DNA of 26,594 bases, taken from positions 1 to 26,594 of the IMG/VR virus record IMGVR_UViG_3300037572_000344. One strand, given 5' to 3'. The notes beneath the pieces were generated by a model, which made no database searches, was not told the origin of the DNA, and worked only from the letters and a program-made list of their open reading frames with translations. Shown here in pieces: positions 1 through 26,594 of the stretch; the stretch's first letter is position 1; every line of letters begins with the position of its first letter. The stretch comes from a virus. Both the position numbers and the translations under genes were made by a program.

Positions 1-3000
1 AGATACGATATTAGCCAGGTAGTCATTTGATATGTCTTTTTCTTTTAATTTTGAAATAACATAACTTTCAAAAGAACGCGCTGCCATTTCTCGCATGGTT
101 CCCCAATAATCTTTTGTCCGCTTGCCATCGAGTATCCTTGCGCGTTTTGGCAGACCTGATTCTTTAATTGCATCAGATATGCCTTTAAACCTTGCTACCA
201 TCGCAGGACGGATGGATTTATTTAACAGTTCTCGTGGGCGCTCAGTAACAAAGGACGCGCCTTCACCACGTATTCTTGAGAAATAATTATCTAAGCCATG
301 AAACCACTCGTGAGCAAGCGATCCGGCACCATCTTTCTTAGTCAGATTGATGACGATTTTATCTTGCTCATAATGCGCTTTAGCTGCATCTTTACCACCA
401 ATTCCACGCGCACCAAAGGCTAAACCAAGTTCTCCATTCAGCGATAATGATTTAGGCGGTATATCCAGAAGTTTAGCCAGATCCATCAGCCCATCGTAGG
501 CATCGTTAATGTCTTGCTGGCGTTTTTCCTGACCAACCCAATTACCAAATTCAACGCCACGGAACCCGAATGTATCTGCAAATTCTTCAGCCGTTACATT
601 CTTACCGTTACGATAATCTTCACCTAAACGAGCAGTATTAACGTCTTTCCTATGTTTTGGAATCGCTTTGAACTTTTCTAACTTATCTTCTATTTCCTGC
701 TGGTTTTCATTAACATAAGCCCTTGCTTCAGCCGATGTTTCAAACCCTTCTGCAAGGTCAGCATGGTTCCGCCCGATCTTTTTACCAATTATCCAGCCAC
801 GACTACCCTCTGTGCCACGGTACTTATATACATCAAACTTTGTTACACGCTTACCTTTTGGCTGATTTTCTATTGTCTCTGCATGTTTTTTTAATGCAGC
901 AATGGCTTCTTCTCGTGTATCGGCTTGTATAATATTTCCACCCATGCCGCCAAACGATTCCTTACTTTTAGCGGTAACATCAACCACCCATTTTGTTACA
1001 TTTTTCTCACCATTCCAGATAGTATAATGCACTTTTTCGAGCGTCACGCCTTTTAAGCTGGCACCGCTTTCAGGAAACCCGAACTCAATCAGCAAATCAA
1101 TACGGTCAGCTAGTTTAGATAGGTTTTCATTCTCACGCAGACCAGAAATGAATTTATCGGCGAAGCTATCACTATCAAGAATACTATTAGCAGTATTACG
1201 CGCCAACTTAACCGCTTCAACATAACGTGCTTTTTTGTACAGAGTTCGCCCTTTTGTTGGTATCTCGTCACGCATTACCTTGATAGCCGCAAGCGCCGTT
1301 TTATCCGCACCATTAGCTGCCAATGCTTTATAGTTTGGCTCAGGAAATGACTTGCTTAGTGGCAAAGTTTCAAGTTCATCTTGAGATAGATTCTTGCCTA
1401 CCTGCTCTCTAAATCCAGACCATGCATCTTTTCTGGAACCGCCTATTTTCTCACCGAAGTCTTCAATCTTCTCACCAGAAACTTGATCCATATCATCTTT
1501 TTTTGTTTCTTGGTTAGCTTTTGATTTAACGGCTTTATTGTCAGCCTTGTCAATTACGGCTCCAGTCTTTATTTTATTTTCTTGACTGGTTTTTGATTCT
1601 TTATCAACCGTATCAGTTTTTACCTCTGTTTCTTTATTTTGAGTTTTGTCAGCAGGGTAAGCCGCTTTCAAATCATCCAGCGTGTATTCACCACTGCGAA
1701 ATTTGCTAATAGCATCAAGGCGGTCTTTTCCGGTAATGGCAGCGTCATCAAGTACTTTAGTTGCAGTTAGTTCGTTAGATTCTTTTGTCTTGGCTTCTTC
1801 CTGTTTTGTTTTTTCTTGAGTTTTGCCAGTTTCTGTCTTAATGCTTTTGTTTATGTCGGTAACAGGGGTAGTTTCCGACTTAACAGTGGGTTCAGCTTGT
1901 TTTGCGGCTTCTGTTGTAAAGGTTTGTGTGTTTGATTGTAAAGGTTTGGCAGCTTCGTTGAATGTATTAGCCCATTGTTTCGCCAATGTGTCATTATTTT
2001 CAAACAAGATTGCCTTAATATCTTTAAGTGATTTGTCACCGTTTGTTACTTTTTCAACCCATCCTTTAACTGCTTTAATGTCGCTTGCTATGCTTTGCAA
2101 TACTTGCCCATGTTTTTTACGATTGAGTTTTCCAATATTTACTTTATTGCCATTATCGAATTCGATGTTTCCTTTATGATCTTTTGGCGCATTACCTGAA
2201 ACTGTTTTGTGCTGTGACTCAAGAAACGTAATAACAGCGTTTAATTCTGCAATATCTTTATCCCTGTTGCCTGCGTGGTCAGATACTTCTATAGGTTTTT
2301 TATTTTTTGTATCATTGCCGTCGTTGAAGAATGTATCTAGTAGGTCGCTCTCGCTGTCCTTTTTCCCTTCTGGATTTGCCCTGTCAATAGCTCTTTTTAA
2401 AGAAACCGCATCTAATGTAAGTTTAGCGCGTTTATTGCCAAGTACGCCGGTTACTACATAACCATCATTTGTAATTGAGTCAATCGAGACACCACGAATC
2501 ATTTTTCCTGTGTTTGGTGTTATTTTTCCTATTTTTTGACCAACAACAAAATTAAGTTTAGTTTTCGTTTCTACTATTTTTTTCTTAAAATTTTGATTAT
2601 CAATATATTGCCATGCGTTAGATATTTCTGTTTGAACTGCACCGCCATCTACGCCATTTTCAATGTTTTCAGGGATGAAGTCACCCAGGTCTTTTCTAAC
2701 AAAATCGACGGCTTCTCTATATGATTTAACGCCACTTTCTTTTGCTTTTTGTACAGACTCGATTAGTTTAATGTCTTTTTTATCAGGCGTAGTACGTTCA
2801 AGATTAATGTTGCGCCATTTATTATTCGACTCTGTAGATGTTTTACTAAGTTGATAGATGTTGCTGGTTTCGGCTTCTTTTTGTCCAGTGGCAGGCTCAA
2901 CCAGATTGTTTTCAGGGCTGGTCGCTGCTTCGTGTGCCGCTTTATCAATCAGCTTTTTCTTTTTTAAGTTCCCTGATTTTGCTCTTTCTGGCTTGATTGT

Positions 3001-5652
3001 TTCTGCTTCCGGCGCTGTCTGCGCTGGTGCAATACGTGCATTGCTACCAGGTTCACTTTGCTCTTGTCGATTTTCCTGTCCTTTTTCATTGGTTTTATCC
3101 TCACTAATAACTAATTCATATAAAGCACGTGCAATGTCTTTTGTTTCAACACCTTCTGTACCCAGCGCATCTACAACGGCATTAGTTTGAGCTTCCCCGA
3201 CTTTTTCTTCTGCCAGGTCTGCCAATCTTGCTAAGGCATCGGCTTCTTTGCTTATTTTTTCCGACTCAACCGAATCAAGCGAAGTTGTATACTCAGTATA
3301 ATCATTTTCATATTCGTTTAAATCATTATCTGTTGCTTCCCATTCATTGTAGGCTTCTTCAAATGAATCGTTATCACGGCGATTGTTGTACATAAAATCA
3401 GCAACATCAACACCGTATTTTTCTTTTAATTCTTTATAGTCTTTAAAGTCTTTTATTCGTGACTCGCCTTTTTTAATTAATGGCCGAATGTAATCCAGCG
3501 TTGCATTCGCGTCTGCCTGTGCCACAGCTTCTTCAGGTGAATAGGTTTTTTCTCCATTAATACCCGCATGAAGAATTTCTAATACTGCGTTTTTATCTAA
3601 CCGTTCTCCATCTTCACCGGCAAAGCCGTATTCATGCAGTAGCTCACCAATATCGTCAACCCCCCTGCCGCCATTATGCGGAAACACTGTCTTGCCAAAT
3701 ACCGGCGCTTTCAGTTTTTTAATGTCTTCTGGATCTACGCCTTCGTCAATGGCACTTTGCCGATCAACCCCACCAGCTTGTGCAATGATGGAAAACGCAT
3801 CATTACCACCTTTGGATAGCTCTTTTTCCTGTTTGCGTAACTGCCTTAATCCACTGCGTACATCACGAGAATTGTGCGACTCAACCAGTTCATCGAAACT
3901 ACGTTCCTTTTGTTTTGGTGTTTCGTAATCAATCTGGTGTGCCGCATCAAACCAGTCTGAAGCAGACTCCGGCGCTTTCTTTTCACCCGTTTTAGTATCA
4001 ACATACTCAAAATCAATACTGTTATTGTCTTTTATGCCTTGTTGGTTTTTGGCTACAAGCGTTAGTTTATCTTCTTGATCTGCCTCAATATCTGACTCGT
4101 TAAAATCAATACTGTTCTCTGTTTCACCGGCTGCCCCTTTTGCTCCCCTTACAGGTTTGCCAAAGTCACTGGTATCAATACTTGAAATTTCTTTTTCTGT
4201 TTCGCCAATCTTTTTATTATCCGCTTTAACTAATTCAGAAACATCACTATCAGGCGCAAACCTGGCTTTGATTCGTTCGTTACCTGCTTTAACCAATTCA
4301 GGATCAATATCAGTCGAAACAGGCATATCACCTTCAACGGCGGTAATATCCTCGGTATTATCGCTTTTTTGCTTAATATCTTTATTAGTGCCACCTCTTG
4401 ATGCAAGCTCCCCCTTTAGTGCGCTTATTGCATCTTTTAACTTTTCGTCGCCTTTTCTTCGATTAAAAACATCTTCAGCGCTGCTAATAATCGTGTTTAG
4501 TTTTTTGGTAGGTATTAACTCAAGATTTCCCTCTAGTGTTGAGGCTATAATAATTTTTGCTTTTTTAGGGTCGCCTATTGTTCGGTTGTAACCATAAACG
4601 CCAGTGCCTACCGTTCCCCCCATGACAGTTGTTAATAAAAAAGTTGCCGGGGCGATTTCTTTAAACGCTTCAAAAACATCAGCAGGGCTTGTAAACGATC
4701 TTTTTTCTTTATCGCTCAATCCAGCATCAACGGCAACATTACCCTGCCCGATTTGGGTCACCGTTTCCGTGGCAAACTCTACGCCATATACTGAACTTAA
4801 TTTTGTTACTAGCCGTGATGCAACGTTTTTTCCTAAAAACTGCCTTAAAGGCGCTGTAATTATTTTTAATCCAGCAACGTTACCAATAGCTTCCGGCACT
4901 GCTTCCCAGTAACCAGATTCATTAGCTAACCCTCTTATTGTTTTTGTGTATGATTTGGTTTCGGCATCGGTCATCGGCGATTTGCCAGTAAACTCGCGCT
5001 CTCTATTTTTAACATCAACCGCTGATGTTAAAAATTCATTTGTTGCCATTCTTTGCGCTGCCACTCCTGACGCTAATCCACCGCCAGCCCATGATGTACC
5101 AGGCACAGGGATTGGTGCGGCAGCTATAGCGCCAGTAAGCCCAGCGGCCATTGAAACAGTTGAAAAAGCAAGATTATTGCCTAATTCTCTGAAGTCTTTA
5201 GCCGTATAGCCAAATAATATTTTTTCATTAACGCCGGGTTCTGAGATACGTTTTTCGAGCAACTCGCCTGCTTCTTTTCGCCATTCATCCATCCGATTGT
5301 ATTCAGCGTAAGGAGTATCACCTTCAATAACAGAGGCTACTTTACCCTTAGCATAAGTTGGCACATCGGCAATCGTTCGGGCAAATTCACCAATAAGACC
5401 ACGACTTCCAGTTTTTTTCGCCACAGGCTCTTGTTCAAATGAGGGCAGGTTATTAAGCAAAGACGCATCAAAATTTGATTCATCAGAGTATGGCGCAAAA
5501 GCGTTATTTTGATTTTTGCTATCATCTGTTTCTGAGTCGTTTGAAAAGAAACCAGAAGAATCATACTGTACTAAGTCTGTAGATGGGCTACTTTCCTCTT
5601 CAAAGAAAGAAGAAGAGTCGTATTTACTGGCTTGAGCGCTGTTTTCGGGCAT
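1..5652 (-). CDS. Giant polyvalent-type virion protein with LPD-like domains and a zincin motif (partial, C-terminus beyond window)
   Basis: One frame stays open from the ATG at 5652 to base 1 (1884 codons, no stop), so the C-terminus is outside the window. Residues 1 to about 75 are acidic and rich in Ser, Asp and Asn, with two similar YDSS-x-FF motifs. Two hydrophobic Gly/Ala-rich stretches follow (about 155-210 and 335-358). Around 660-720 is a GGRGVDDIGELLHEYGF-type segment resembling a short domain common in phage giant proteins. About 720-1500 is mostly charged, low-complexity linker. Residues about 1535-1695 look like LPD5, and about 1695-1830 like LPD1 (FGNWVGQEKRQ, LGLAFGARG). The zinc-protease motif HEWFH is at 1781-1785, with Glu1862 a possible third ligand. 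Such polyvalent proteins are known from phages and conjugative elements and are thought to enter the host with the DNA. It follows the ejection-protein genes after a terminator. The ribosome site is weak. Domain names come from memory of the families. Confidence 0.88.
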   Translation of the reverse strand, partial: MPENSAQASKYDSSSFFEEESSPSTDLVQYDSSGFFSNDSETDDSKNQNNAFAPYSDESNFDASLLNNLPSFEQEPVAKKTGSRGLIGEFARTIADVPTYAKGKVASVIEGDTPYAEYNRMDEWRKEAGELLEKRISEPGVNEKILFGYTAKDFRELGNNLAFSTVSMAAGLTGAIAAAPIPVPGTSWAGGGLASGVAAQRMATNEFLTSAVDVKNREREFTGKSPMTDAETKSYTKTIRGLANESGYWEAVPEAIGNVAGLKIITAPLRQFLGKNVASRLVTKLSSVYGVEFATETVTQIGQGNVAVDAGLSDKEKRSFTSPADVFEAFKEIAPATFLLTTVMGGTVGTGVYGYNRTIGDPKKAKIIIASTLEGNLELIPTKKLNTIISSAEDVFNRRKGDEKLKDAISALKGELASRGGTNKDIKQKSDNTEDITAVEGDMPVSTDIDPELVKAGNERIKARFAPDSDVSELVKADNKKIGETEKEISSIDTSDFGKPVRGAKGAAGETENSIDFNESDIEADQEDKLTLVAKNQQGIKDNNSIDFEYVDTKTGEKKAPESASDWFDAAHQIDYETPKQKERSFDELVESHNSRDVRSGLRQLRKQEKELSKGGNDAFSIIAQAGGVDRQSAIDEGVDPEDIKKLKAPVFGKTVFPHNGGRGVDDIGELLHEYGFAGEDGERLDKNAVLEILHAGINGEKTYSPEEAVAQADANATLDYIRPLIKKGESRIKDFKDYKELKEKYGVDVADFMYNNRRDNDSFEEAYNEWEATDNDLNEYENDYTEYTTSLDSVESEKISKEADALARLADLAEEKVGEAQTNAVVDALGTEGVETKDIARALYELVISEDKTNEKGQENRQEQSEPGSNARIAPAQTAPEAETIKPERAKSGNLKKKKLIDKAAHEAATSPENNLVEPATGQKEAETSNIYQLSKTSTESNNKWRNINLERTTPDKKDIKLIESVQKAKESGVKSYREAVDFVRKDLGDFIPENIENGVDGGAVQTEISNAWQYIDNQNFKKKIVETKTKLNFVVGQKIGKITPNTGKMIRGVSIDSITNDGYVVTGVLGNKRAKLTLDAVSLKRAIDRANPEGKKDSESDLLDTFFNDGNDTKNKKPIEVSDHAGNRDKDIAELNAVITFLESQHKTVSGNAPKDHKGNIEFDNGNKVNIGKLNRKKHGQVLQSIASDIKAVKGWVEKVTNGDKSLKDIKAILFENNDTLAKQWANTFNEAAKPLQSNTQTFTTEAAKQAEPTVKSETTPVTDINKSIKTETGKTQEKTKQEEAKTKESNELTATKVLDDAAITGKDRLDAISKFRSGEYTLDDLKAAYPADKTQNKETEVKTDTVDKESKTSQENKIKTGAVIDKADNKAVKSKANQETKKDDMDQVSGEKIEDFGEKIGGSRKDAWSGFREQVGKNLSQDELETLPLSKSFPEPNYKALAANGADKTALAAIKVMRDEIPTKGRTLYKKARYVEAVKLARNTANSILDSDSFADKFISGLRENENLSKLADRIDLLIEFGFPESGASLKGVTLEKVHYTIWNGEKNVTKWVVDVTAKSKESFGGMGGNIIQADTREEAIAALKKHAETIENQPKGKRVTKFDVYKYRGTEGSRGWIIGKKIGRNHADLAEGFETSAEARAYVNENQQEIEDKLEKFKAIPKHRKDVNTARLGEDYRNGKNVTAEEFADTFGFRGVEFGNWVGQEKRQQDINDAYDGLMDLAKLLDIPPKSLSLNGELGLAFGARGIGGKDAAKAHYEQDKIVINLTKKDGAGSLAHEWFHGLDNYFSRIRGEGASFVTERPRELLNKSIRPAMVARFKGISDAIKESGLPKRARILDGKRTKDYWGTMREMAARSFESYVISKLKEKDISNDYLANIVS
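298..312 (-). other. Zincin active-site motif HEWFH in the giant protein
   Basis: Codons for His1781, Glu1782, Trp1783, Phe1784 and His1785 form an HExxH motif inside an LPD1-like stretch (GAGSLAHEWFHGLDNYF). In zincin metalloproteases the two His bind zinc and the Glu activates water. About 80 residues on, in a REMAARSFESY segment, Glu1862 (bases 67-69) is a plausible third zinc ligand. The motif is read directly. Protease activity is inferred. Confidence 0.75.
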
Positions 5653-5688
5653 TTTCAATATCTCAATAGATTTATCTAAGAATTTAAC

Positions 5689-5717: not shown

Positions 5718-5740
5718 AAAGCCCGAATTAACGGGCTGTA
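5714..5740 (-). terminator. Rho-independent terminator before the giant gene
   Basis: Minus-strand stem AGCCCG/CGGGCT (5732-5737 with 5720-5725), loop TTAATT, followed directly by a run of T (5716-5720). It lies between the stop of the 93-aa gene (5779) and the ATG of the giant gene (5652), in a 126-base gap that holds no other gene. It probably ends or attenuates the late transcript here. Confidence 0.75.
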
Positions 5741-5778: not shown

Positions 5779-6060
5779 TCACAAAGCAGACTTAACAATC
5801 GCTTGTTCAGTGTCAACATGCATGGTTTTTTTAAGTTCATTAATTTCTTTTTGAAGATCAGCATTTAATGCATTGGCATCATAAAGTTGAATCGCAATAT
5901 CTTCGTCAATACTAAACGCTTCTTCAAACAACGGATCAACCTTCACTTCTTCTACATCACTTGTATGTTCAACAATTTTTTGTATTTCACAAAGCGGTTT
6001 AAAAACTATATAGCCATGTTTTTCAAGATACCCTTTAAGCATATTATTTATTAATTTCAT
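5779..6060 (-). CDS. Small phage protein of unknown function (93 aa)
   Basis: I do not recognise this protein. The start at 6060 (MKLINNML) is chosen because AGAGG (6069-6073) sits 8 bases upstream. A longer frame from 6105 would overlap the upstream gene and has no better ribosome site. The N-terminal 20 residues are basic and amphipathic. The rest is acidic, with a likely helix near the C-terminus (ALNADLQKEINELKKTM). It lies directly after the 545-aa internal protein and before a terminator, so it is the last gene of this transcript segment. A role as a small virion or chaperone protein for the ejection proteins is only a guess from position. Confidence 0.7.
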   Translation of the reverse strand: MKLINNMLKGYLEKHGYIVFKPLCEIQKIVEHTSDVEEVKVDPLFEEAFSIDEDIAIQLYDANALNADLQKEINELKKTMHVDTEQAIVKSAL

Positions 6061-6073
6061 TTTTTTAACCTCT

Positions 6074-7711
6074 TTAATTATTACTTGCAATTGTGATTTT
6101 CTCACTATTGAGATACTTACGAATAATGGCTATTTTTTTCTTCGTTAATTTTCTGACTAACGAACTATCAAGCAAGGCAAGCCGGACTGTCTCAGGCGAC
6201 AAGCCTTTCAAATTACCTGTTCTGCTATTTAATCGTTGTTTGACCTGCCGCGCCGCACCTCTAACCTTATTACCGTGTACCTGTCTTTTTCTGATCTGAG
6301 AAATGCCCCCTCCAAAATCGGGTTCCTCTGGCAATAAATCCTGTATATCTGCTTTAATTGCGTCCAGCTTTGATTTTGATTTTGTAATACCAGACGAATA
6401 CCCGCCTGATAACCCCTGATCTGGCTTTTCTGGTTCGCTAATTTCGGTATCATCAGCCATTGCAACAACCGTTGTATCTAAAGCCTTGTCCAAGGTATCC
6501 TTTGCTGGGTCAATACCCGTCTGACCATGCTCTAACCCACCCTGTGCCACTGCATTTTCTGGCGCAGGCGTTTCAATTGGAGCGTTATTGGCCTTTGTTT
6601 CAACTTTATTTGCCTTAATATCTTCCTGCATTTTTTGCTGGATTATATCGTCTGGCCAACCGAGTTTTTTTGCTTTTTCATAGTATTGCTCCTGCGTCAG
6701 TTTTTTAGGCTGTGTTTCGCTTTTTGTGTTAGTTGTACCGGTCTGCTGTAGTTGGTTTAAGCGTTCATCGACAATGGATTCCAGCACAAGCCTAACTCGC
6801 TCCTCTTTCCATTCATCTTCCGGGATAACGCCTATTTCAACACCTTCTTCAAACTCTTCGTTTACAATCTTTTCTGCTTGTTTTGCATATACAAGCAAGT
6901 CTCTTTGTGCGTCACGCGATGCACCGGCTCTATCGCCATTTCTAGCAATCTCGTAAGCCACACCAAGCACCCCTATCCGGGAAGAAGCGTCAGCTTTAGA
7001 TACATACTGAAAGCCCATTGTATCTAGTGCTGTCTGTGTAATATCGCCTCTTTTTGTGTGATAATCTACCCGCTCCTTACTTATTTTATTCTGTTGTGCC
7101 TGTGCTTTGCTTGCCCCGGTCTCACCACCAGCTCTAACGTTGGCAACGGCTAAACTACCGGTATTTTGCAAACCTATTTGCGCTAATTTGTCTTCCTGTG
7201 CTCGCACTGCTTTCGCTTGCTCTGCTTCCATTCTTGTTATTTCATTAGGATTTGTTATGCCTGTAAGAGCCATGCCGATTTCATCACGACTCATAGGCGC
7301 TGTTTTATCTTGACCATTTATCTGAAAAGTAATTAAATACTTACCGTTTTTGGTTTTTGGTTTTTCTATGTTTGTGATTTGGTTGCCATCATCTATCGAG
7401 TTATAAAGTGGCATTATTCCAGAAATATCACCAGAGATCATAAAAGCGCTTCTGACCTTTCTTCCCATCTCCGCTCTCTGGTAGGTTTTTTCTTGTCTGC
7501 CATAATTTACATCAGCCCGTACATAAGAATCATCGTTCCTTTCATCTAAAACTTGCTGGCGTTCACGCCGACTTTGTTGGTATTCGCGTGATCGCTCTGC
7601 ATCTTCTAACCCCTGATTATAAGTTTCATCAGCACGATAATCGGCCTTAATGTTACGCATTGCGCGTGATGCACCTGTTAATACACTACCTAAACCGTAT
7701 GTGCTACTCAT
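6074..7711 (-). CDS. Internal virion (DNA ejection) protein, coiled-coil type (545 aa)
   Basis: A long hydrophilic protein with an N-terminal Arg/Glu/Gln-rich helical region (about residues 20-85, e.g. SREYQQSRRERQQ). A mixed region (about 90-150) resembles a small folded domain (GKYLITFQINGQDKT). Long helical stretches follow to about 340, then a Pro/Ala/Asn-rich linker (about 375-420) and a basic C-terminus (KLTKKKIAIIRKYL). No enzyme motif is visible. This composition, the position after a 270-aa Ala/Gln-rich protein and the position before the giant protein match the internal/ejection proteins of short-tailed phages (T7 gp14-16 and P22 gp7/16/20 are functional analogues, not clear homologues). 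The start is supported by AAAGG about 9 bases upstream; the gap to the 270-aa gene is 11 bases. Confidence 0.75.
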   Translation of the reverse strand: MSSTYGLGSVLTGASRAMRNIKADYRADETYNQGLEDAERSREYQQSRRERQQVLDERNDDSYVRADVNYGRQEKTYQRAEMGRKVRSAFMISGDISGIMPLYNSIDDGNQITNIEKPKTKNGKYLITFQINGQDKTAPMSRDEIGMALTGITNPNEITRMEAEQAKAVRAQEDKLAQIGLQNTGSLAVANVRAGGETGASKAQAQQNKISKERVDYHTKRGDITQTALDTMGFQYVSKADASSRIGVLGVAYEIARNGDRAGASRDAQRDLLVYAKQAEKIVNEEFEEGVEIGVIPEDEWKEERVRLVLESIVDERLNQLQQTGTTNTKSETQPKKLTQEQYYEKAKKLGWPDDIIQQKMQEDIKANKVETKANNAPIETPAPENAVAQGGLEHGQTGIDPAKDTLDKALDTTVVAMADDTEISEPEKPDQGLSGGYSSGITKSKSKLDAIKADIQDLLPEEPDFGGGISQIRKRQVHGNKVRGAARQVKQRLNSRTGNLKGLSPETVRLALLDSSLVRKLTKKKIAIIRKYLNSEKITIASNN

Positions 7712-7722
7712 AATAATTACCT

Positions 7723-8535
7723 TTAATAATAAGCATTGTAATCTGCTTCTGTGACACCGTAATCATCCCATGCATTAGTAGCGGGAGCTCTCATGTTATA
7801 TATCTGACCAGCAAGCTCTAAACCACCCTGCACAATACCGCCTGCGTTCGCGGCATTGTTGTTTGCTATATTGCCGTATTGGCTGGCTATGCCGCCGTAT
7901 GCGGAAAGTGAAGCCGTTGGCGATAAACTGGTTCCACCAGAGGCTTGCGTTGGCCTGTTGCCACCAGGGGCGCGACCACTGGCAACCGATAAGCGGCTAA
8001 AGTTTTCATTTTCAACCCGGTCTTTTTCATTCTCACGCGCAAGGTTAATAGCGCCAGAACTGGCTTTTGCCTCAGCTAGACCATATTGACGCTCATTACT
8101 GCGGTACGCTCCTGAATCTGGACGAACACCACGGCGCTCTAAGTTTCTTTGTTCGGTTCCACGTGCAACATCAAATTGACCGGCTACGGTTTCAGCGGCT
8201 TCACGAGTAGCCCTGTCAGTCTGATCGCGCACCCCCTCCTGAGCCATCGTAGCGAATTGTTCTTGAACCGGGCGGTAAAAGTCAGTGTATAGCTTATAAT
8301 CATCCTCCCCGCGCTGTTGTGCTAGTTTTCGTGCATCAATCCCCAGCTCTTGCGCTTCTATTTCAAGCGGCAGAATGTTTTCTGAGTATTGCTCCCACTG
8401 TTCTCGTGCAAGCTGGTTTTGTTCATTTAATGCTGCCTGTTGCGCTCTCGCTGCATCACTTGCATCACCTTGCGCTTCTGCGCCCATAAGCAGGCTTGCC
8501 CCGCCTATCGCTATACCGGCTATTGCTGCTGACAT
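7723..8535 (-). CDS. Internal virion protein, ejection-protein type (270 aa)
   Basis: The N-terminus has a hydrophobic Gly/Ala segment (AAIAGIAIGGASLLMGAEAQG, residues 3-23 less the last few), followed by a long Ala/Gln/Arg-rich helix (ARAQQAALNEQNQLAREQWEQ region, 28-120) with LPLEIEAQELG. The middle is Arg-rich (RGTEQRNLERRGVRPDSGAYRS) and the C-terminus is Gly/Asn/Ala-rich. This layout is typical of short internal virion proteins in podoviruses, which leave the capsid with the DNA and can form part of a trans-envelope channel. The hydrophobic N-terminus fits membrane contact. The ATG overlaps the upstream cupin-like gene by 16 bases and has GGAGA 6 bases upstream. Family assignment rests on composition and gene order. 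Confidence 0.75.
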   Translation of the reverse strand: MSAAIAGIAIGGASLLMGAEAQGDASDAARAQQAALNEQNQLAREQWEQYSENILPLEIEAQELGIDARKLAQQRGEDDYKLYTDFYRPVQEQFATMAQEGVRDQTDRATREAAETVAGQFDVARGTEQRNLERRGVRPDSGAYRSNERQYGLAEAKASSGAINLARENEKDRVENENFSRLSVASGRAPGGNRPTQASGGTSLSPTASLSAYGGIASQYGNIANNNAANAGGIVQGGLELAGQIYNMRAPATNAWDDYGVTEADYNAYY

Positions 8536-9086: not shown

Positions 9087-9286
9087 TTTATTTTATCCGC
9101 GTTTACCACGCCAGCATCTATCATATCCTGCACACTCGGGCGCTTAATGCTCGTGCCTACCCGGTTAACATCTCTTTGCATCCCTTCAACTTGTGCTTTT
9201 ATCGCCAATAAAAACCGTTTTAAATTCGGGTCTTGTATTGATGACAAAGTAGATATTGACGGTATTTGTGTTAGTTTTTTACTCAT
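9083..9286 (-). CDS. Small conserved-type phage protein (67 aa)
   Basis: A 67-aa protein joined on both sides by ATGA overlaps: its ATG overlaps the stop of the 677-aa tail protein, and its stop overlaps the ATG of the cupin-like protein. The sequence has the form DPNLKRFLLAIKAQVEGMQRD followed by a basic link and PSVQDMIDAGVV. I associate this pattern (a helix, a basic turn, then a VxDLxDAG-like ending) with small proteins lying between tail hub and internal protein genes in other short-tailed phages. Function is unknown. Close coupling suggests a fixed stoichiometry with its neighbours. Confidence 0.7.
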   Translation of the reverse strand: MSKKLTQIPSISTLSSIQDPNLKRFLLAIKAQVEGMQRDVNRVGTSIKRPSVQDMIDAGVVNADKIK

Positions 9287-11316
9287 GCTTTTTGTAAATC
9301 TGAAATGCTTTCAGCAATCGTTACTTCATGGAAGTTCATCCCACTTCCAGACAGTTCAATTTCGTATTCATCAGCGTTATAACCACCGGGCAATCTAAAC
9401 GGTCTGGAATCAGTTAATGGCTGTTCATAATGCAGTTCACCATTAACATAAAGTTTAAAGGTTGCTGAAAGACTGCTGCCGCTAATATCTTTTGTTGTGT
9501 CAATGTAGGGGCCAGAACCCACCGCAAACTCTCCAACGGCATGACCACCAAATGATCCATTAACAGAATTATCTTTAGCGTCCAAAAATGCCACAACTTT
9601 GGCAATTTCAGCCGGTTTGTCTACCAGGGCAATACCACCGGCAGCCGAAAACTTAACCTGGGCTGCCTGCATGGTTGTTTGCGTTCCCAGGATAAAACGT
9701 TTTGATTTCCATTGTGCGGTAATAAAACCGCCGCCTTTGCCAAAATTAACAATAAAATCGCCATCAACTAAATATAAATTACCGTCTTCTAAATGATTAT
9801 AAGCGGCTGTTGCGTAGACGCTTAATACGGTTAAGGTTGAATCTGGCTCTGAGGGATCGAAAACAAGCGCCCCCCTTCGCGAAGCCCCGCCATCATTATC
9901 CAGACCACCTTCAAAAAACACATAATAACGGTCGTCATGGACTACTGCATTCATTGACGAAGGATTGTATTCACGCCAGTCAATTTCTTTTAACCAGTTG
10001 CGGGTAATAATGCTGGGCGCACCAGATGAAGATATGTAAGCCAAGCCATCCGGGCAGGCGTATATCATGCCGTTTTTTATACTAACAATTGAACGCTTAG
10101 AAACACATGCCTGGAAAAAATCCAGTTCATCAGCACCCATAAACGCAGGATCATTGCCGGTTACGATATAAGGATTACCCTTTGTGGTAACGATAATAGT
10201 TGAACCGACTGTAGCAAGACCAACAATCTCATAAGAGAAATTTTGATCATAACCTGTCGGGAACGCATGTGGCATGAAGGGCTCAGATAAATACAAAGTA
10301 TTGCCTTTAAACCCGGCTATTACCCCATTAGTTAAACCAATCAACCCTTTTATATCTTGTGGTGGACTGGTCCAGTCAATACTCGGCAGCTCTTCGCCTA
10401 AGAGCGTGTCATCAAGTGTATCGTTATGAGTGGTTTGCGCGACGGGTATTTCAGTAACGAAACGAAACTTGCCCGATACCGTCCGGTAAATCCGCTTAGT
10501 CATATTGGTCACTTGTAGATTAGCTTCACGTGTCCACGTGCCACCAGATGTATAAGTGCCAGAAGGTGACAAGGCTACACTAAACGTGGTGGCCGTTAGC
10601 CGAGTGACAGGTAAAGGATTGGCATTATTGAAGGTATCCGGTAAATCACCGGTACCAACAATGTTACTAAAATTAACATAGTCACCTGTTTCAAGAAAAT
10701 GCGCGGCACTCACCGTAAAAGTGGCGACTCCACCACCTATAGCAATGTTTGTAATCGTACCGGTATTTAATGGCGCAATATCCATGACGGATAAATCCCA
10801 TGAGCCATCAACAAAACCCGTTATGGTGACATGGGGCGAGGGCGCGCTTTCTTCACCCCATGCAGTGACGTAGGTGTAAACGTAATCACGGGTAATGGTG
10901 GTGCCAGAACCACCGGTCACGCTTAATGCTGGCGCATTATCCGGCGCAGGCAAGCCCAAACGATACCAGTCAAGCGGGTAGTTTGTCCCTGCGCCATTAC
11001 TCGCTAATGTTAAATTAGTCGATTTAATACCATAATGACCAGAGTAATATATTCGGTCACTATCACTGGATGATAACGGGGAGCGAACCACATCAACATC
11101 TTCATTCCAGTGTAAAAATAATGGCCCGAGCTTGTGTATCGTTTGAATGTCGCCCTCTTTACCGGGCACGTCAACAATCACACTGCTGCGTAATGAGCGG
11201 ACTTCATTACTCCATAAATCACAGTTTAATGCTTCTTGTGCAAATGAAGGGTGCAGTTTTCGTTTTGCATATCTTGGCGCAATACCGTTAAACTTTTTTA
11301 TGCTGATTATCGACAC
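9283..11316 (-). CDS. Tail hub/nozzle-like virion structural protein (677 aa)
   Basis: The N-terminus (KKFNGIAPRYAKRKL ... ALNCDLWSNEVRSLR) is typical of large tail-tube or nozzle proteins of short-tailed phages. About 122-180 looks like a fibronectin-type strand set (YVTAWGEESAPSP). It is interrupted at about 185-264 by a beta insert (FLETGDYVNFSNI ... TTFSVALSPSGTYTSGGTW) resembling E1-FCCH-like inserts seen in phage proteins. From about 300 there are repeated beta-propeller-like strands (GNTLYLSEPFMPHAFP, SIKNGMIYACPDGLAYIS). The final 150 residues are beta-rich. A function comparable to P22 gp10 or T7 gp12 is inferred from size, fold pattern and order. The start is a GTG with no strong ribosome site, 5 bases after the upstream stop, so the exact start is uncertain. 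Confidence 0.72.
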   Translation of the reverse strand: MSIISIKKFNGIAPRYAKRKLHPSFAQEALNCDLWSNEVRSLRSSVIVDVPGKEGDIQTIHKLGPLFLHWNEDVDVVRSPLSSSDSDRIYYSGHYGIKSTNLTLASNGAGTNYPLDWYRLGLPAPDNAPALSVTGGSGTTITRDYVYTYVTAWGEESAPSPHVTITGFVDGSWDLSVMDIAPLNTGTITNIAIGGGVATFTVSAAHFLETGDYVNFSNIVGTGDLPDTFNNANPLPVTRLTATTFSVALSPSGTYTSGGTWTREANLQVTNMTKRIYRTVSGKFRFVTEIPVAQTTHNDTLDDTLLGEELPSIDWTSPPQDIKGLIGLTNGVIAGFKGNTLYLSEPFMPHAFPTGYDQNFSYEIVGLATVGSTIIVTTKGNPYIVTGNDPAFMGADELDFFQACVSKRSIVSIKNGMIYACPDGLAYISSSGAPSIITRNWLKEIDWREYNPSSMNAVVHDDRYYVFFEGGLDNDGGASRRGALVFDPSEPDSTLTVLSVYATAAYNHLEDGNLYLVDGDFIVNFGKGGGFITAQWKSKRFILGTQTTMQAAQVKFSAAGGIALVDKPAEIAKVVAFLDAKDNSVNGSFGGHAVGEFAVGSGPYIDTTKDISGSSLSATFKLYVNGELHYEQPLTDSRPFRLPGGYNADEYEIELSGSGMNFHEVTIAESISDLQKA

Positions 11317-13171: not shown

Positions 13172-13828
13172 CTACAAGTTCTCAATAACTTTCGGATCAA
13201 CCGTTGCATCTACGGCAACTTTCTCACCCAATATCTGAAAAAATTGTGAATAATGTTTTGCCGCTCTTGCATAATTAGGCGATTTTTCACTGTCTCGACT
13301 AAATAAACGATACAAACACCATTCGACTAATGCCGGTGTATATTGCTCAATGATGGGCACATCTGTATTTTCATCCACCACCGCCACATGATTGGTAGCA
13401 AGGCGCATCTCAACATAAACAGCAGTGATGGTATGGACGGGTGGCGTAACATAATAATGTAACGGGCTGGCCGCGTTGTAGATATACTCGCTTATCTCGG
13501 TAACAGCCAGGTCATTGTGCCAGTCTGGATTAAAGGTATCGAGTTCTTCTTGTGCAATAGGGCCACGTACCGCTTTACCCGGAATTGCTCCATTCGTTCC
13601 CATGTTCCTGATAATACCCATTAGTTTATGGGTATCGCCTGGCAGCGCCTGTTTAGTACCGGGCACTAACCGTACACTGCGAAGCTCTACCAGAGCATCA
13701 GGGCGCTTTGATAGTAATACGCGAACAGCATCATCAATCCAGTTGAACACCTGTGTAGACGAGTAGGTAACGCCGCGCACATCATTAATAACTTCTTGCA
13801 CTGCATCCAATATAAATTTAACCTTCAC
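13172..13828 (-). CDS. Head-tail adaptor protein, DUF6682-like (218 aa)
   Basis: The sequence has the DUF6682-type layout: an N-terminal helix with VINDVRGVTYSSTQVFNWIDDAVR, then a beta part (RLVPGTKQALPGDTHKLMGI), then HYYVTPPV and a C-terminal helix pair with ARAAKHYSQFFQILG. These proteins are phage adaptors that join portal to tail. I place the start at the GTG at 13828 because GGAGG (13837-13841) lies exactly 8 bases upstream. A run of ATG codons at 13849 is the longer alternative (225 aa) but has no such site. The gene overlaps the 3' end of the preceding adaptor by 11 bases, which suggests coupled translation. Confidence 0.82.
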   Translation of the reverse strand: MKVKFILDAVQEVINDVRGVTYSSTQVFNWIDDAVRVLLSKRPDALVELRSVRLVPGTKQALPGDTHKLMGIIRNMGTNGAIPGKAVRGPIAQEELDTFNPDWHNDLAVTEISEYIYNAASPLHYYVTPPVHTITAVYVEMRLATNHVAVVDENTDVPIIEQYTPALVEWCLYRLFSRDSEKSPNYARAAKHYSQFFQILGEKVAVDATVDPKVIENL

Positions 13829-14492
13829 GTGCAATTCCTCCATCATCAAAATTGATTATCTGATTACTTTTTACTTCTTGGTTCATGGCTTCATTAATGC
13901 CTGCAATAAATTTAGCATGGTAATATTTAACCATGGCATCGTTCGTCCATTCTTTTTTCGGCATTGCCATTAATTCTGCTTTAGCGCCAGCGGCCAACGC
14001 ATCAAAAAACTGGTTATAGAGGTCTTCATCAATAACAGTTCCGTCTGGTAAGGGCTTGACTGAAACCGTGCCAGTTAAACCATTTGTTTTGCTAATACTT
14101 GGCTTCGGGAATAATCTCACTTCACTTAATCGCGGCTGATAAAAATATTCAGCTTGTGAACCGGAAAAGGTGCGCCATGGTGCAAACGCGGTACTTGATC
14201 CTGATCGCGGCCAATGGGCATCCATTTGTTTCTCACTTTTTGCATAGATAGGCATATCTTTATCAAACAGGGTTTTTATGCCAACAATTTGTGTTTCTGC
14301 CGGTATATCCAGGGTATAAACTGACTGACCTGGCGTTATGTTTATCGCCGTCATGTCATGCCGCCATGCTTCTGATATGCTGCAAAACTCAATCACTTTA
14401 GTCACAATTTTGTTATTAACTAACGCAGTCGGGCAGCCGGGAACCTCGGGTACAACAAATTTATTTAAAAGACTTAAATTAACTAATGCCAT
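13818..14492 (-). CDS. Connector/adaptor protein, short copy of a tandem duplicate (224 aa)
   Basis: This protein is a clear paralogue of the C-terminal half of the preceding 421-aa protein. Starting at PEVPGCP about 53 of 84 residues match by my count, including NNKIVTK, IEFC, SEAWRH, ETQ, VGIK and AKSE; further shared blocks are FYQP, VRLFP, GLTGT, VKPLPDGT and KFIAGI. It keeps the whole domain and has only a 15-residue leader before it. Position before the DUF6682-like adaptor and after the head genes points to a head-tail connector role. I do not recognise a named family with confidence. The gap to the upstream copy is 15 bases. Confidence 0.75.
   Translation of the reverse strand: MALVNLSLLNKFVVPEVPGCPTALVNNKIVTKVIEFCSISEAWRHDMTAINITPGQSVYTLDIPAETQIVGIKTLFDKDMPIYAKSEKQMDAHWPRSGSSTAFAPWRTFSGSQAEYFYQPRLSEVRLFPKPSISKTNGLTGTVSVKPLPDGTVIDEDLYNQFFDALAAGAKAELMAMPKKEWTNDAMVKYYHAKFIAGINEAMNQEVKSNQIINFDDGGIAREG
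13837..13841 (-). promoter_or_regulatory. Shine-Dalgarno GGAGG that decides a GTG start
   Basis: GGAGG on the minus strand, inside the last codons of the upstream 224-aa gene, is 8 bases ahead of GTG at 13828. It lies downstream of the ATG triplet at 13849, so it cannot serve those codons. This favours GTG as the start of the DUF6682-like adaptor. Confidence 0.7.
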
Positions 14493-14507: not shown

Positions 14508-15773
14508 TTAAGACCAGGTTCGGGTGCGTCCTGTTGTGTTATTTGTTGTCTGGTTGCTTCTTGCTTCCTTGCCACGTGCATGACCAATACCTGCAATAAA
14601 TTTACTGGTATAAAAACTAACCATTTCAAGATTTGTCCAGTCCTTGCCCGGCATCGCCATTAAATCGGCTTTTACGCCTGCGGTAATCGCGTCATAAAAT
14701 TGGTTGTATATGTTTCGACTGAGGTTTGTACCATCTGGCAATGGTTTGACTACGATTGTGCCGGTCAGCCCTTTTAGTTTGTTTTGATCTGGCGTAGGGA
14801 ACAATCTCACCTGATGTATTTCCGGCTGGTAAAAATGTGTAGCTCGGGCACTGGACGCTGTGCGCCATGACTGACAGGGCGAATCTGATCCAGCGTGATA
14901 ATCTAATGTTGTTTTTAATTGCGGCCAGTTACTATCTATTTGCTGTTCACTTTTCGCGGCAATAGAACAATCATTGTCAAACAGGTTTTTTATGCCAACG
15001 ACCTGTGTTTCAGGTGGTGTATTGAGCAGATATAACGATTTACCAGCAATAATATCTATTGGAATTATTGTGTGTCGCCACGCCTCTGATGTCTCACAAA
15101 ATTCAATGGTCTTGGTAACGATTTTATTGTTAATTAAAGCCATCGGGCAGCCGGGAACTTCGGGCGCAATGAATTTTATTAAATCACTGAGTTTTAAATC
15201 CGTGTTGTAATAAACGACAACATTATAAGAAATAAGGTTTAATGAAGCGGTCGTTGCATTTATTGCAACCGGCACATCTACATTAACGATCACATCAAAA
15301 GCAACCAGATTTAAAACCGGTGTTGATACATTAATTAAAACCGGCGTATTAAGATTAATTACCGCATCAAACGAGGTTAATAATAAACTTGCGGTGGTTG
15401 CTTGTATATCTGCAACGGTATCACCCGTTACTATCGTACCTGCTATGTTAGAAGTTGTTAATACGCCATCAACGTATAAATCCCATTTCCACCCAACAAT
15501 ACAATCATCCGTTATTGTTAAATCAAAACTGGTATCTTCGTAAGCGGTAAAATTTGCTATTGATCCAGGCCCTAAAACAACAAAGGGTTCAGTCGTAATC
15601 AGCCCCTGTATTTCAAGTAAATTATCAGCAGGCAATACCAATGAGTCATAAGCATAAGCCGCGCCGTGTGCGCCAGTAGCGGGTATATCCTGCCCTGGAA
15701 TACCCAAACCACCATTACTGCTAACGATATGAGCATTAGCAATTAAAGCGCCATTACCAACCCGGTGAGACAT
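14508..15773 (-). CDS. Connector/adaptor paralogue fused to an N-terminal beta-repeat domain (421 aa)
   Basis: Residues about 196-421 are the paralogue of the next gene (PEVPGCPMALINNKIVTK onward). Residues 1-125 form a separate domain: Gly/Ala-rich at first, then GPGSIANFTAYEDTSFDLT and WKWDLYVDGVLTTS, which looks Ig-like. Residues 127-195 hold three beta-rich repeats of 24 residues. The fusion suggests that one copy of a duplicated adaptor gained a surface-exposed module. It could decorate the neck or hold fibres while the short copy keeps the core role. The start is 2 bases after the upstream stop, with GGAAG upstream. Function is inferred from context only. Confidence 0.75.
   Translation of the reverse strand: MSHRVGNGALIANAHIVSSNGGLGIPGQDIPATGAHGAAYAYDSLVLPADNLLEIQGLITTEPFVVLGPGSIANFTAYEDTSFDLTITDDCIVGWKWDLYVDGVLTTSNIAGTIVTGDTVADIQATTASLLLTSFDAVINLNTPVLINVSTPVLNLVAFDVIVNVDVPVAINATTASLNLISYNVVVYYNTDLKLSDLIKFIAPEVPGCPMALINNKIVTKTIEFCETSEAWRHTIIPIDIIAGKSLYLLNTPPETQVVGIKNLFDNDCSIAAKSEQQIDSNWPQLKTTLDYHAGSDSPCQSWRTASSARATHFYQPEIHQVRLFPTPDQNKLKGLTGTIVVKPLPDGTNLSRNIYNQFYDAITAGVKADLMAMPGKDWTNLEMVSFYTSKFIAGIGHARGKEARSNQTTNNTTGRTRTWS
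15189..15395 (-). repeat. Three 24-residue beta repeats in the 421-aa protein
   Basis: Protein residues 127-150, 151-174 and 175-195 align as TASLLLTSFDAVINLNTPVL.., TPVLNLVAFDVIVNVDVPVA.. and TASLNLISYNVVVYYNTD... The period is 72 bases. Alternating hydrophobic residues suggest stacked beta strands. Confidence 0.75.
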
Positions 15774-17010: not shown

Positions 17011-18249
17011 TTAAGCGTTAGGGTCAACCGCGTAGGAATCAATTGTGATAACACCGTGATCGGTAGGTATACCATCAACTTCAAAACGCAACTTAGACTT
17101 ACCGCCCATCATCGCTACGGAAACCTCAACGGTATTGCCGTGGTCAGTTTCTTCTTCATGCCAGTTATAGTAATAACCTGACTTCTGATGGCGACCATAA
17201 ACCTCAGCCAGTGCTTGTGCGCCCAGTAATACAGAACGATCAACGTCAACCGCTGTCTGCACTGTTTGAATAACATTGCTTGTATCGTACTGGCGAACAT
17301 CACTGCCCGTTGGGAAGCGACAAGCACGACCGGTCTTTTTAATCAAGATGCCGTTCCACATGCCAACCGTACCCATAAACAACGGATGATTAAAACCACG
17401 AGAGCGTTCATGCGCCGCAGCTAAGAACGTGCGCCATGCAGTTGCACCGGTATTGCTTTCAATTTGATGCCATACACGACTGGATACCTGCAAGCAGTAC
17501 AGTGGATTATCATCAGCCTGTGGATCCATATTGCCTTTTACGTCCATTAATTTAATGGGCTGCAAAGGGTGTACCGTTTCATCAAGAAAGACGCGAAATT
17601 TGTCGATTTCAGTCAACGACAATATGTCAGCCGAGTCGATATTTTCAACGCCGGTAGCATCACCAGCAAAGAAACGACGATTACGTGTAGGAGGCAGAAC
17701 GGTATTAACCATGATTTCAGCAAAATCAGGATCAGTTTCCAGCGGGATTTGCCAGTCAACACCAGAATCAAAGCCACGTGCGCCATAAATATGTACCTGG
17801 CATAACTGATCTTCCAGGTTAGAAACCCAGCCGCCCAGATTCGCCAGTGCCAATTTACGCAAGTTATGCACTGTACGTTGCTGTGACATGCGACCACCTG
17901 GGTCAACACCACCACGAGCCTGGTTGATTTTAATATCCTGTGATGAATAGGTCATATCCATCATTGAACCGGCCAGTTTTTTGTCGCCCATCACAGGTTT
18001 GCCCTGAATGATGTTGAACAAGTCAACCGAAACCGACTCACCCTGCTCTTTTGACAGATCAGTTACCCGAACAAACGGATAATCCGGTGAGGTTTGATTT
18101 TTTAGTTTACGTTCGGCATCGGTCTGCTTTGGCGCAGGCCCGACCATGTTTTTACGGAATGAAGGCTTACGGTTTGTTGATGCAAATAATGCAACCGAAT
18201 ACTTCTTAGCTGCCAGCGCAGAGCCGACACCAATAGTTGTTTGTCCCAT
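17011..18249 (-). CDS. Major capsid protein, N4 gp56/DUF4043 type (412 aa)
   Basis: The sequence fits the DUF4043/N4 gp56 major capsid family throughout. The N-terminus is TTIGVGSALAAKKYSVALFA; then come EQGESVSVDLFNIIQGKPVMGD and SSQDIKINQARGGVDPGGRMS with QQRT. The helix LRKLALANLGGWVSNLEDQL follows, and the C-terminus has LLGAQALAEVYGRHQKSGYYY and WHEEETDHGNTVEVS. Length is typical. HK97-fold capsid assembly is established knowledge for this family. It follows the scaffold gene by 41 bases, with AGAGG 8 bases before the ATG, and precedes the small head protein. Unlike many HK97-type phages, no separate maturation protease gene is seen between scaffold and capsid in this window. Confidence 0.92.
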   Translation of the reverse strand: MGQTTIGVGSALAAKKYSVALFASTNRKPSFRKNMVGPAPKQTDAERKLKNQTSPDYPFVRVTDLSKEQGESVSVDLFNIIQGKPVMGDKKLAGSMMDMTYSSQDIKINQARGGVDPGGRMSQQRTVHNLRKLALANLGGWVSNLEDQLCQVHIYGARGFDSGVDWQIPLETDPDFAEIMVNTVLPPTRNRRFFAGDATGVENIDSADILSLTEIDKFRVFLDETVHPLQPIKLMDVKGNMDPQADDNPLYCLQVSSRVWHQIESNTGATAWRTFLAAAHERSRGFNHPLFMGTVGMWNGILIKKTGRACRFPTGSDVRQYDTSNVIQTVQTAVDVDRSVLLGAQALAEVYGRHQKSGYYYNWHEEETDHGNTVEVSVAMMGGKSKLRFEVDGIPTDHGVITIDSYAVDPNA

Positions 18250-25742: not shown

Positions 25743-26062
25743 TTTAGCCTCGTTAGTGGTTTAATTGATTTGATGGGTTTTACGTGATTGACATTGAGTG
25801 TGTTATTACTTAAAACATCAAGTGACACCACATGAGTATATTTTTTTGTTTGAATATACCTTTTTATGACAATATTATTGTTATCAACAACATTCCCATT
25901 TTTTATTTTAATAGGCTGTAGTGATTTAGGACTTTTAATCCTCTTTGCATCTAATACAAAATGGACAATAGCGTTTTTATTTAAAACTCCATCTGTAAAA
26001 ATACGGCCATCATCATGTATGATAGTGTCATTCTGTGGGTTTGTGTGTTGCATAATTATCAT
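25739..26062 (-). CDS. Small basic protein of unknown function (107 aa)
   Basis: I do not recognise this protein. The start overlaps the stop of the BspA-like gene and the end overlaps the start of the exported 147-aa protein (both ATGA), so it is translated in a chain with its neighbours. The N-terminal part contains DGRIFTDGVLNKNAIVHFVL. The C-terminal part is Lys/Asn/Val-rich, with KNGNVVDNNNIVIKRYIQ and IKSIKPLTRLK. No signal peptide or membrane segment is present. An alternative start 4 codons downstream (MQHTNP) is possible. Confidence 0.6.
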   Translation of the reverse strand: MIIMQHTNPQNDTIIHDDGRIFTDGVLNKNAIVHFVLDAKRIKSPKSLQPIKIKNGNVVDNNNIVIKRYIQTKKYTHVVSLDVLSNNTLNVNHVKPIKSIKPLTRLK

Positions 26063-26594
26063 AATGCGCCCCCATCTGTTATTGTCCAGCTATTCGGGGG
26101 ATCTGTTAATACTAATCGTGCTGTTGTTTCAGTGTATTGTGCTGACCCGGCATGTAAATTTACCGCTGTTTGTAATGTAAGCAATGACCATGAGGCAAGT
26201 AACAAATCATAATTTGTATTTGAAAAATTAGATAGATTAAACATAGAACCCATATCAGTAACTGCGCTAACATTCCAGTTTGATACATCTGGGTTTGCTA
26301 CAGATGCCTCTCTAAACATATAACCCATATTAGTAACTGCGCTAACATTCCAGTTTGATACATTTGGGTTTGCTACAGATGCATTATAAAACATAGCACC
26401 CATATCAGTAACTGCGCTAACATTCCAGTTTGATACATCTGGGTTTGCTACAGATGCATTAAAAAACATAGCATACATATTAGTAACTGCGCTAACATTC
26501 CAGTTTGATACATTTGGGTTTGCTACAGATGCATTATAAAACATATAACCCATATTAGTAACTGCGCTAACATTCCAGTTTGATACATTTGGGT
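26059..26594 (-). CDS. BspA-like repeat protein, C-terminal part (partial, starts beyond right edge)
   Basis: The frame is open up to base 26594 and continues the repeat pattern there, so the N-terminus lies outside the window; the ATG at 26553 is internal to a repeat. At least four full repeats of 25 residues of the form SNWNVSAVT(N/D)MxxMFxxA and SVANP(D/N)V are seen, the BspA/DUF285 leucine-rich-like repeat. The C-terminus (LSNFSNTNYDLLLASWSLL, then FHAGSAQYTETTA-like and NSWTITDGGAL) is the usual capping region of this family. Members are surface proteins that bind host matrix or other cells; in a phage it would most likely be a tail-tip or cargo adhesin. It is transcribed before the exported 147-aa protein. 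Confidence 0.8.
   Translation of the reverse strand, partial: PNVSNWNVSAVTNMGYMFYNASVANPNVSNWNVSAVTNMYAMFFNASVANPDVSNWNVSAVTDMGAMFYNASVANPNVSNWNVSAVTNMGYMFREASVANPDVSNWNVSAVTDMGSMFNLSNFSNTNYDLLLASWSLLTLQTAVNLHAGSAQYTETTARLVLTDPPNSWTITDGGAL
26251..26594 (-). repeat. Near-identical 75-bp tandem repeats coding for BspA-like units
   Basis: The unit containing GTAACTGCGCTAACATTCC repeats every 75 bases (for example from 26251 and 26326), for about four and a half copies up to the window edge. Differences are few: cat versus cct type changes and TATCAG versus TATTAG. The copies are closer to each other at DNA level than needed to keep the protein, which suggests recent expansion or gene conversion. 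Confidence 0.85.

What the first reader, a model, noticed from the sequence alone, without database searches (positions are those of the whole stretch)
1..5652. Giant LPD-type polyvalent protein as the last gene of a virion operon
A frame of at least 1884 codons, cut by the window edge, carries LPD5/LPD1-like domains, a zinc-protease motif HEWFH and long disordered linkers, next to two internal (ejection) protein genes. Polyvalent proteins are proposed to be packaged and injected to protect the incoming genome. Here the placement after the ejection genes suggests delivery from the virion. Bcep22-like podoviruses are known to have a very large virion protein, so this could be a distant relative with a different domain set.
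Basis: partly seen in the sequence, partly recalled or inferred. Interest (0 to 1): 0.85.

Follow-up and report, generated by a model that had tools for sequence, protein, structure and literature searches.

The report
Giant injected multi-domain phage virion protein
This is a 3,640-amino-acid phage protein, the last gene of a virion-gene block and most likely packed into the virus particle and injected into the bacterium with the DNA; it belongs to a known class of giant injected proteins but carries its own set of predicted enzymes.

Summary
The frame runs off the window's left edge (minus strand). An IMG/VR contig identical to the window over 13,548 nt extends it to a complete 3,640-aa (405 kDa) protein, followed by opposite-strand genes including an integrase, so the phage is probably temperate. 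LPD5 and LPD1 are confirmed by Pfam and LPD38 is added.

The HEWFH motif is a genuine zincin: all catalytic residues are invariant in 72 diverse relatives and the predicted fold is a metallopeptidase. LPD1 carries the probable third zinc ligand. A second zincin (HEXXXH) follows, then a module Pfam does not recognise with a GNAT-like predicted fold, then an LPD38 C-terminus.

The structural block is collinear with Bcep22-like phages DC1 and JC1. The giant's last ~800 aa are homologous to JC1 gp69 (E 8e-62), which published mass spectrometry found in purified virions. The DarB methylase-helicase and lytic transglycosylase of those phages are absent.

It is a new member of a known kind: polyvalent proteins of Bcep22/Stx-type podoviruses. 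Packaging, injection and self-processing are inferred, not shown. A terminator-like hairpin lies just upstream of the gene.

The parts
1..5658 (-). Giant polyvalent protein gene, residues 1-1886 of 3640 (3' part lies outside the window; complete in L003:7891-18813). TTG start at 5658 or ATG at 5652.
4579..5391 (-). N-terminal module, aa 90-360, alanine/glycine-rich hydrophobic segment near aa 163-200; shared with L060 and, for aa 186-363, with Klebsiella phage LASTA 'PLxRFG' protein
3454..3861 (-). Module aa 600-735, shared with Vibrio phage giant proteins; function unknown
571..999 (-). LPD5, aa 1554-1696
   Evidence: Pfam E 8e-34
1..642 (-). First metallopeptidase (zincin), aa 1673-1940 (to aa 1886 in the window): H1762, HEWFH 1783-1787, D1790, E1857/E1864
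   Evidence: invariant in 72 relatives; predicted fold matches zincins of family M34 at Z 9.0, rmsd 4.1 over 183 aa
298..312 (-). HEWFH motif, aa 1783-1787
1..132 (-). LPD1, aa 1843-1929 (cut by window edge); holds E1857/E1864, probable third zinc ligand, so it is likely the C-terminal part of the zincin rather than a separate domain
   Evidence: Pfam, conservation, fold alignment range; zinc geometry not measured
5720..5737 (-). Intrinsic-terminator-like hairpin between the 108-aa gene and the giant gene
   Evidence: stem 6 bp, 5 G-C; fold z -2.15
5779..6105 (-). 108-aa gene; its paralogue (95 aa, 45% identity) lies just past the giant gene in opposite orientation (L003:18952-19239)
6074..7711 (-). 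545-aa gene upstream of the giant gene; positional counterpart of JC1 gp68; no sequence relatives found
7723..8535 (-). 270-aa internal virion protein candidate, homologous to JC1/DC1 gp64
   Evidence: phrog_8003 E 1e-12; blastp E 4e-8
9283..11316 (-). 677-aa internal virion / head-closure protein, homologous to JC1 gp61
   Evidence: phrog_511 E 5e-130; blastp E 5e-42
17011..18249 (-). Major capsid protein (Phage_capsid_3), homologous to JC1 gp48

Best explanation
The gene encodes a 3,640-aa (405 kDa) phage polyvalent protein of the Bcep22/Stx-type podovirus lineage. It is made late with the structural proteins, packed in the head and ejected with the DNA. Shown here: the full frame, the modular order, homology of the C-terminal LPD38 module to a giant protein known to be in virions, and conserved catalytic residues in two zincin domains. 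Inferred: the N- and C-terminal modules handle packaging and transit (the C-terminal one is the part shared with JC1 gp69); the zincins cut the chain into working pieces in the head or after entry; LPD5 and the GNAT-like module then act on host proteins during the first minutes of infection to blunt defence or redirect host functions.
For: The complete frame comes from a contig identical to the window over 13,548 nt, with a second contig agreeing. Modules by Pfam: LPD5, LPD1, LPD38. The structural block is collinear with JC1: capsid to gp48, 225 aa to gp51, 224/421 aa to gp52, 427 aa to gp56/57/59, 677 aa to gp61, 270 aa to gp64, giant aa 2757-3541 to gp69 (E 8e-62) (DC1). JC1 gp48, gp51, gp52, gp56, gp61, gp64, gp68 and gp69 were found by mass spectrometry in CsCl-purified virions; gp69 had 51 unique peptides (PMC9144972). 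Among complete giants with a neighbour, 116 of 133 have the upstream gene on the same strand, and the 270-aa family lies about 2 kb upstream in 61 loci, always on the same strand. H1762, H1783, E1784, H1787, D1790, E1857, E1864 are invariant in 72 sequences; H2035, E2036, H2040 and E2089 of the second zincin are 97-100% conserved. Fold matches: first zincin to family M34 (Z 9.0), second to Certhrax (Z 8.2) and IrrE (Z 6.0). The GNAT-like module's VIA matches are all or nearly all GNAT-superfamily proteins (best Z 10.2). The core is under strong purifying selection against L015 (dN 0.27, dS 2.6, saturated). P1 DarB is directed to the capsid by its N-terminal 30 residues (PMC9024508).
Against: No virion proteomics for this phage. 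The module shared with JC1 gp69 is only the last fifth of the protein. A terminator-like hairpin and a separate 108-aa gene precede the giant gene, so co-expression with the virion genes is not certain. Foldseek itself gave no PDB match under E 1e-3 for either model, so the fold assignments rest on VIA-align Z values of 8-10. N4 vRNAP carries a similar MPTase yet is packaged uncleaved (PMC5512222), so self-processing is not a given.
Confidence: 0.72

Rival explanations
1. It is a structural or ejectosome protein: its main job is to form or line the channel through the cell envelope, with the zincins used for assembly, and not an effector against host defence.
For: It sits beside internal virion protein genes, has a hydrophobic N-terminal segment (aa 163-182) and a helical C-terminal module shared by diverse phages with otherwise different effector domains.
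Against: Close relatives swap enzymatic domains freely: L015 has DdrB-ParB, GGDEF and ART; L173 has H-NS, RadC and ART. That fits effectors better than a channel. The two roles are not exclusive.
Confidence: 0.15
2. It is an N4-like virion RNA polymerase. The related giant ORF30 of Pseudoalteromonas phage vB_PunP_Y3 appears to be the one listed as a virion RNA polymerase hallmark (PMC11654794).
For: Similar size (about 3,500 aa) and virion position; the Y3 paper links ORF30 to N4-like RNA polymerase by PSI-BLAST; Y3's giant is 42% identical to ours over aa 1396-2113.
Against: The full protein matches no PDB chain at E up to 1, and none of the PHROGs it hits is named RNA polymerase. The stretch shared with Y3 is the LPD5-zincin-LPD1 region, and N4 vRNAP also contains an MPTase (PMC5512222), which could explain the PSI-BLAST link.
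Confidence: 0.04
3. It is a cytoplasmic late or lysogeny-linked protein that is not packaged; its place after the virion genes is accidental, and the hairpin and nearby integrase mark a separate unit.
For: Terminator-like hairpin at 5737-5720; integrase gene about 1.8 kb past the giant gene; paralogous small genes on both sides of it.
Against: The same gene order recurs in Bcep22-like, Vibrio, Achromobacter, Pseudoalteromonas and Ruegeria phages, and the JC1 counterpart is in the virion.
Confidence: 0.09

Closest known systems
JC1 gp69 / DC1 gp67 / Bcep22 gp75 'DarB-like' giant virion proteins (Lessievirus)
   Same: Homologous LPD38-containing C-terminus (27% over about 845 columns, E 8e-62 to JC1), same place after collinear structural genes, opposite-strand small genes follow.
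   Different: JC1/DC1 carry a lytic transglycosylase, methylase, COG4646 helicase and LPD3; ours carries LPD5, two zincins and a GNAT-like module instead.
PHROG 616 giant proteins of Stx-type podoviruses (Traversvirus/Oslovirus), annotated 'LPD5 domain-containing'
   Same: LPD5-zincin-LPD1 core (37% identity) and C-terminus (29%); major capsid protein 41% identical.
   Different: About 2,793 aa; the GNAT-like module (aa 2377-2733) was not matched in them; different N-terminal part.
Pseudoalteromonas phage vB_PunP_Y3 ORF30
   Same: 42% identity over aa 1396-2113 incl. LPD5, zincin, LPD1.
   Different: Adds DdrB-ParB, ART and methyltransferase domains; a separate ADP-ribosyltransferase gene follows.
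P1 DarB
   Same: Very large head-packaged protein believed to enter the cell (PMC9024508).
   Different: DarB is defined by a methylase-helicase pair (PMC5512222); none detected here.

Membership tests
Polyvalent proteins (Iyer et al. 2017) | Several distinct domains in one very large polypeptide, including LPDs and a zincin MPTase | tested here: met
   LPD5, LPD1, LPD38; two zincins; predicted GNAT-like module
Polyvalent proteins (Iyer et al. 2017) | Phage-type MPTase with a conserved His before HEXXH and an Asp three residues after it | tested here: met
   H1762 and D1790 invariant in 72 sequences; text
Polyvalent proteins (Iyer et al. 2017) | Encoded among late virion genes | tested here: met
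Polyvalent proteins (Iyer et al. 2017) | Packaged and delivered into the host | not testable with these tools
   only by homology to JC1 gp69
Bcep22-type giant virion protein | Homologous LPD38 C-terminus | tested here: met
   E 8e-62 to JC1, 2e-63 to DC1
Bcep22-type giant virion protein | Collinear place in the structural block | tested here: met
   545-aa gene by position only
Bcep22-type giant virion protein | Lytic transglycosylase, methylase and helicase domains | tested here: not met
   no Pfam hit in 3640 aa at E up to 10
DarB antirestriction protein (P1) | DNA adenine methylase plus SF2 helicase | tested here: not met
N4-like virion RNA polymerase | T7-like RNA polymerase domain | tested here: inconclusive
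   no PDB match at E up to 1 and no PHROG named RNA polymerase; aa 1-1390 and 2750-3640 were not folded
Zincin metallopeptidase | HEXXH plus downstream third ligand in a zincin fold | tested here: met
   activity and zinc binding not tested
GNAT acyltransferase (aa 2370-2740) | GNAT fold | tested here: met
   VIA matches all or nearly all GNAT superfamily, best Z 10.2, rmsd 2.7 over 132 aa; Foldseek none under 1e-3
GNAT acyltransferase (aa 2370-2740) | [RQ]xxGx[GA] acetyl-CoA motif | tested here: inconclusive
   conserved QxGRxxGY at 2493-2500; R-x-x-G-x present but last position is not G/A in this protein

The most novel reading that the evidence does not exclude
A virion-delivered, self-processing effector string in which two different zincins (HEXXH and HEXXXH) release a divergent GNAT-like acyltransferase that Pfam does not recognise and that is widespread in phage contigs, so that phage particles acylate host proteins at the moment of entry; and LPD1 is not an independent domain but the zinc-ligand end of the first protease.
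Probability: 0.25. Interest if true: 0.7.

Novelty: new member of a known kind. Interest (0 to 1): 0.45.

Why it matters
It extends the Bcep22/Stx-type giant virion proteins with a fully resolved architecture that keeps the C-terminal module but replaces the DarB methylase-helicase with LPD5, two zincins and a GNAT-like module.

Tried and rejected
N4-type RNA polymerase: no PDB match and no RNA-polymerase PHROG; kept as a minor rival. Anti-phage defence protein: no PADLOC hit. PKI hit in Pfam: below cut-off and E 5.5 in the full protein, discarded. RNA elements: no Rfam match in the window. The 545-aa gene: no relative found by iterated HMM search in the fetched loci. Rest of the contigs for the capsid gene: not found in L003, L015 or L016 records, uninformative for fragments. 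Genomes of Stx phages were not fetched; only tblastn coordinates were used.

Full report
OBSERVATION. The window holds a minus-strand frame from TTG 5658 (ATG at 5652) to base 1 without a stop, 1886 codons. Shuffled copies of the window gave at most 189 codons. Pfam finds LPD5 (E 8e-34) and the start of LPD1 (E 3e-12). The window is itself a whole IMG/VR record, so the gene was extended through another record: L003 is identical over 13,548 nt and carries the complete gene, 3,640 aa and 405 kDa; L002 agrees. Past its stop come genes on the other strand: 95 aa, 191 aa, 203 aa (endonuclease VII-like), a 346-aa tyrosine integrase and a DNA methyltransferase. The phage is therefore probably temperate.

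ARCHITECTURE. Mapping against 155 giant-bearing loci shows a mosaic: aa 90-360; aa 600-735; a core at 1349-1940 holding LPD5, the first zincin and LPD1, found in essentially all core-selected loci; a second zincin module about 2000-2150; a short module at 2174-2264 and the 'EVQSDWHQ' module at 2354-2740, rare in the core-selected set but matched in all 80 loci fetched with it as query; and a C-terminal LPD38 module at 2760-3620. The loci were fetched with the core or the EVQSDWHQ module as query, so those two counts are biased by selection. The same order recurs in L065. Close relatives replace other parts: L015 (70% in the core) has DdrB-ParB, GGDEF and ART; L173 (Methylophaga MAG, 57%) has H-NS, RadC and ART. 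Complete giants in this set have a median of 2,777 aa and reach 4,950, so size alone is not unusual.

ENZYMES. In 72 relatives H1762, H1783, E1784, H1787, D1790, E1857 and E1864 are invariant; H2035, E2036, H2040 and E2089 of the second site are 97-100% conserved. These match the two MPTase types described by Iyer et al. (PMC5512222): one with a His before HEXXH and an Asp three residues after it, and one of the form HEXXXH. An AlphaFold2 model of aa 1390-2260 (pLDDT 82.8) aligned by VIA to zincins: aa 1673-1940 to family M34 (Z 9.0, rmsd 4.1, 183 aa), aa 1953-2151 to Certhrax (Z 8.2) and, over part of it, IrrE (Z 6.0). This is shared fold, not shared function or target. The first match spans LPD1, whose Pfam start is aa 1843 and which contains E1857 and E1864, so I infer that LPD1 is the C-terminal part of the protease. 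The model of aa 2150-2750 (pLDDT 75.5) aligned by VIA to all or nearly all GNAT-superfamily proteins (Z up to 10.2). Foldseek alone found no PDB match under 1e-3 for either model. In BFVD the second model matches uncharacterised phage proteins, some named ART-PolyVal-like or large polyvalent protein. GNATs in polyvalent proteins are already on record; I could not test whether this is one of those families.

VIRION LINK. Window genes match JC1 in order: capsid gp48 (7e-38), gp51 (3e-26), gp52 (1e-10), fibres gp56/57/59, gp61 (5e-42), gp64 (4e-8) and the giant's C-terminus to gp69 (8e-62); DC1 gives the same picture. The JC1 paper lists gp48, gp51, gp52, gp56, gp61, gp64, gp68 and gp69 as virion-associated by mass spectrometry, gp69 with 51 unique peptides. 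This is homology-based evidence that the present protein is packaged. P1 DarB offers a precedent for a large head-packaged protein.

WHAT DOES NOT FIT. Between the 108-aa gene and the giant gene lies a 6-bp, T-tailed hairpin (5737-5720), so the giant gene may not simply be the operon's last cistron. The 545-aa gene is an orphan. The JC1 homology covers the last fifth of the protein. Methylase, helicase and transglycosylase, which mark the Bcep22/JC1 giants, were not found at E up to 10, so 'DarB-like antirestriction' should not be carried over as a function.

MECHANISM. Most likely the protein is packed in the head with the ejection proteins and delivered with the DNA; zincins then release pieces, and LPD5 and the GNAT-like module act on host proteins. 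Packaging is supported by homology; processing and targets are inferred.

VERDICT. A real, well-conserved new member of a known kind, with a domain set that differs from the Bcep22 giants.

Noticed in passing
window 5779-6105 (-) and L003:18952-19239 (-): Two paralogous small genes (108 and 95 aa, 45% identity, E 6e-19) flank the giant gene in opposite orientations; no relatives found in the fetched loci.
   Followed up: partly
window 5720-5737 (-): Terminator-like hairpin between the 108-aa gene and the giant gene; the giant may have its own promoter or depend on read-through.
   Followed up: partly
window 13818-14492 and 14508-15773 (-): Two adjacent paralogues (224 and 421 aa, 56% identity) both matching JC1/DC1 gp52; the longer one has about 190 extra N-terminal residues. 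A dual tubeA arrangement is reported for Bcep22-like phages (PMC10386132).
   Followed up: no
window 22320-24488 (-): 722-aa protein with two polysaccharide-lyase domains (PL14 family, E 2e-16, and PF14099, E 2e-8) plus Ig-like repeats, next to a 536-aa TIG-like protein; possible capsule-degrading tail component.
   Followed up: no
window 26059-26592 (-): Start of a protein with DUF285/BspA-type repeats (E 1e-43), running off the right edge.
   Followed up: no
L015:4765-14259, aa 1047-1155: The closest relative in the core carries a GGDEF domain in the giant protein, beside DdrB-ParB and ART; GGDEF in polyvalent proteins is already on record.
   Followed up: no
L173 and L016 giants: RadC-like domains in giants, one of them on a 56-kb IMG/VR contig, although RadC was reported only from conjugative-element polyvalent proteins.
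   Followed up: no
L005:13107-23372: The giant ORF of phage vB_PunP_Y3 appears to be the one described as an N4-like virion RNA polymerase (ORF30, PMC11654794); its Pfam domains are those of a polyvalent protein, so that label may be mistaken.
   Followed up: partly
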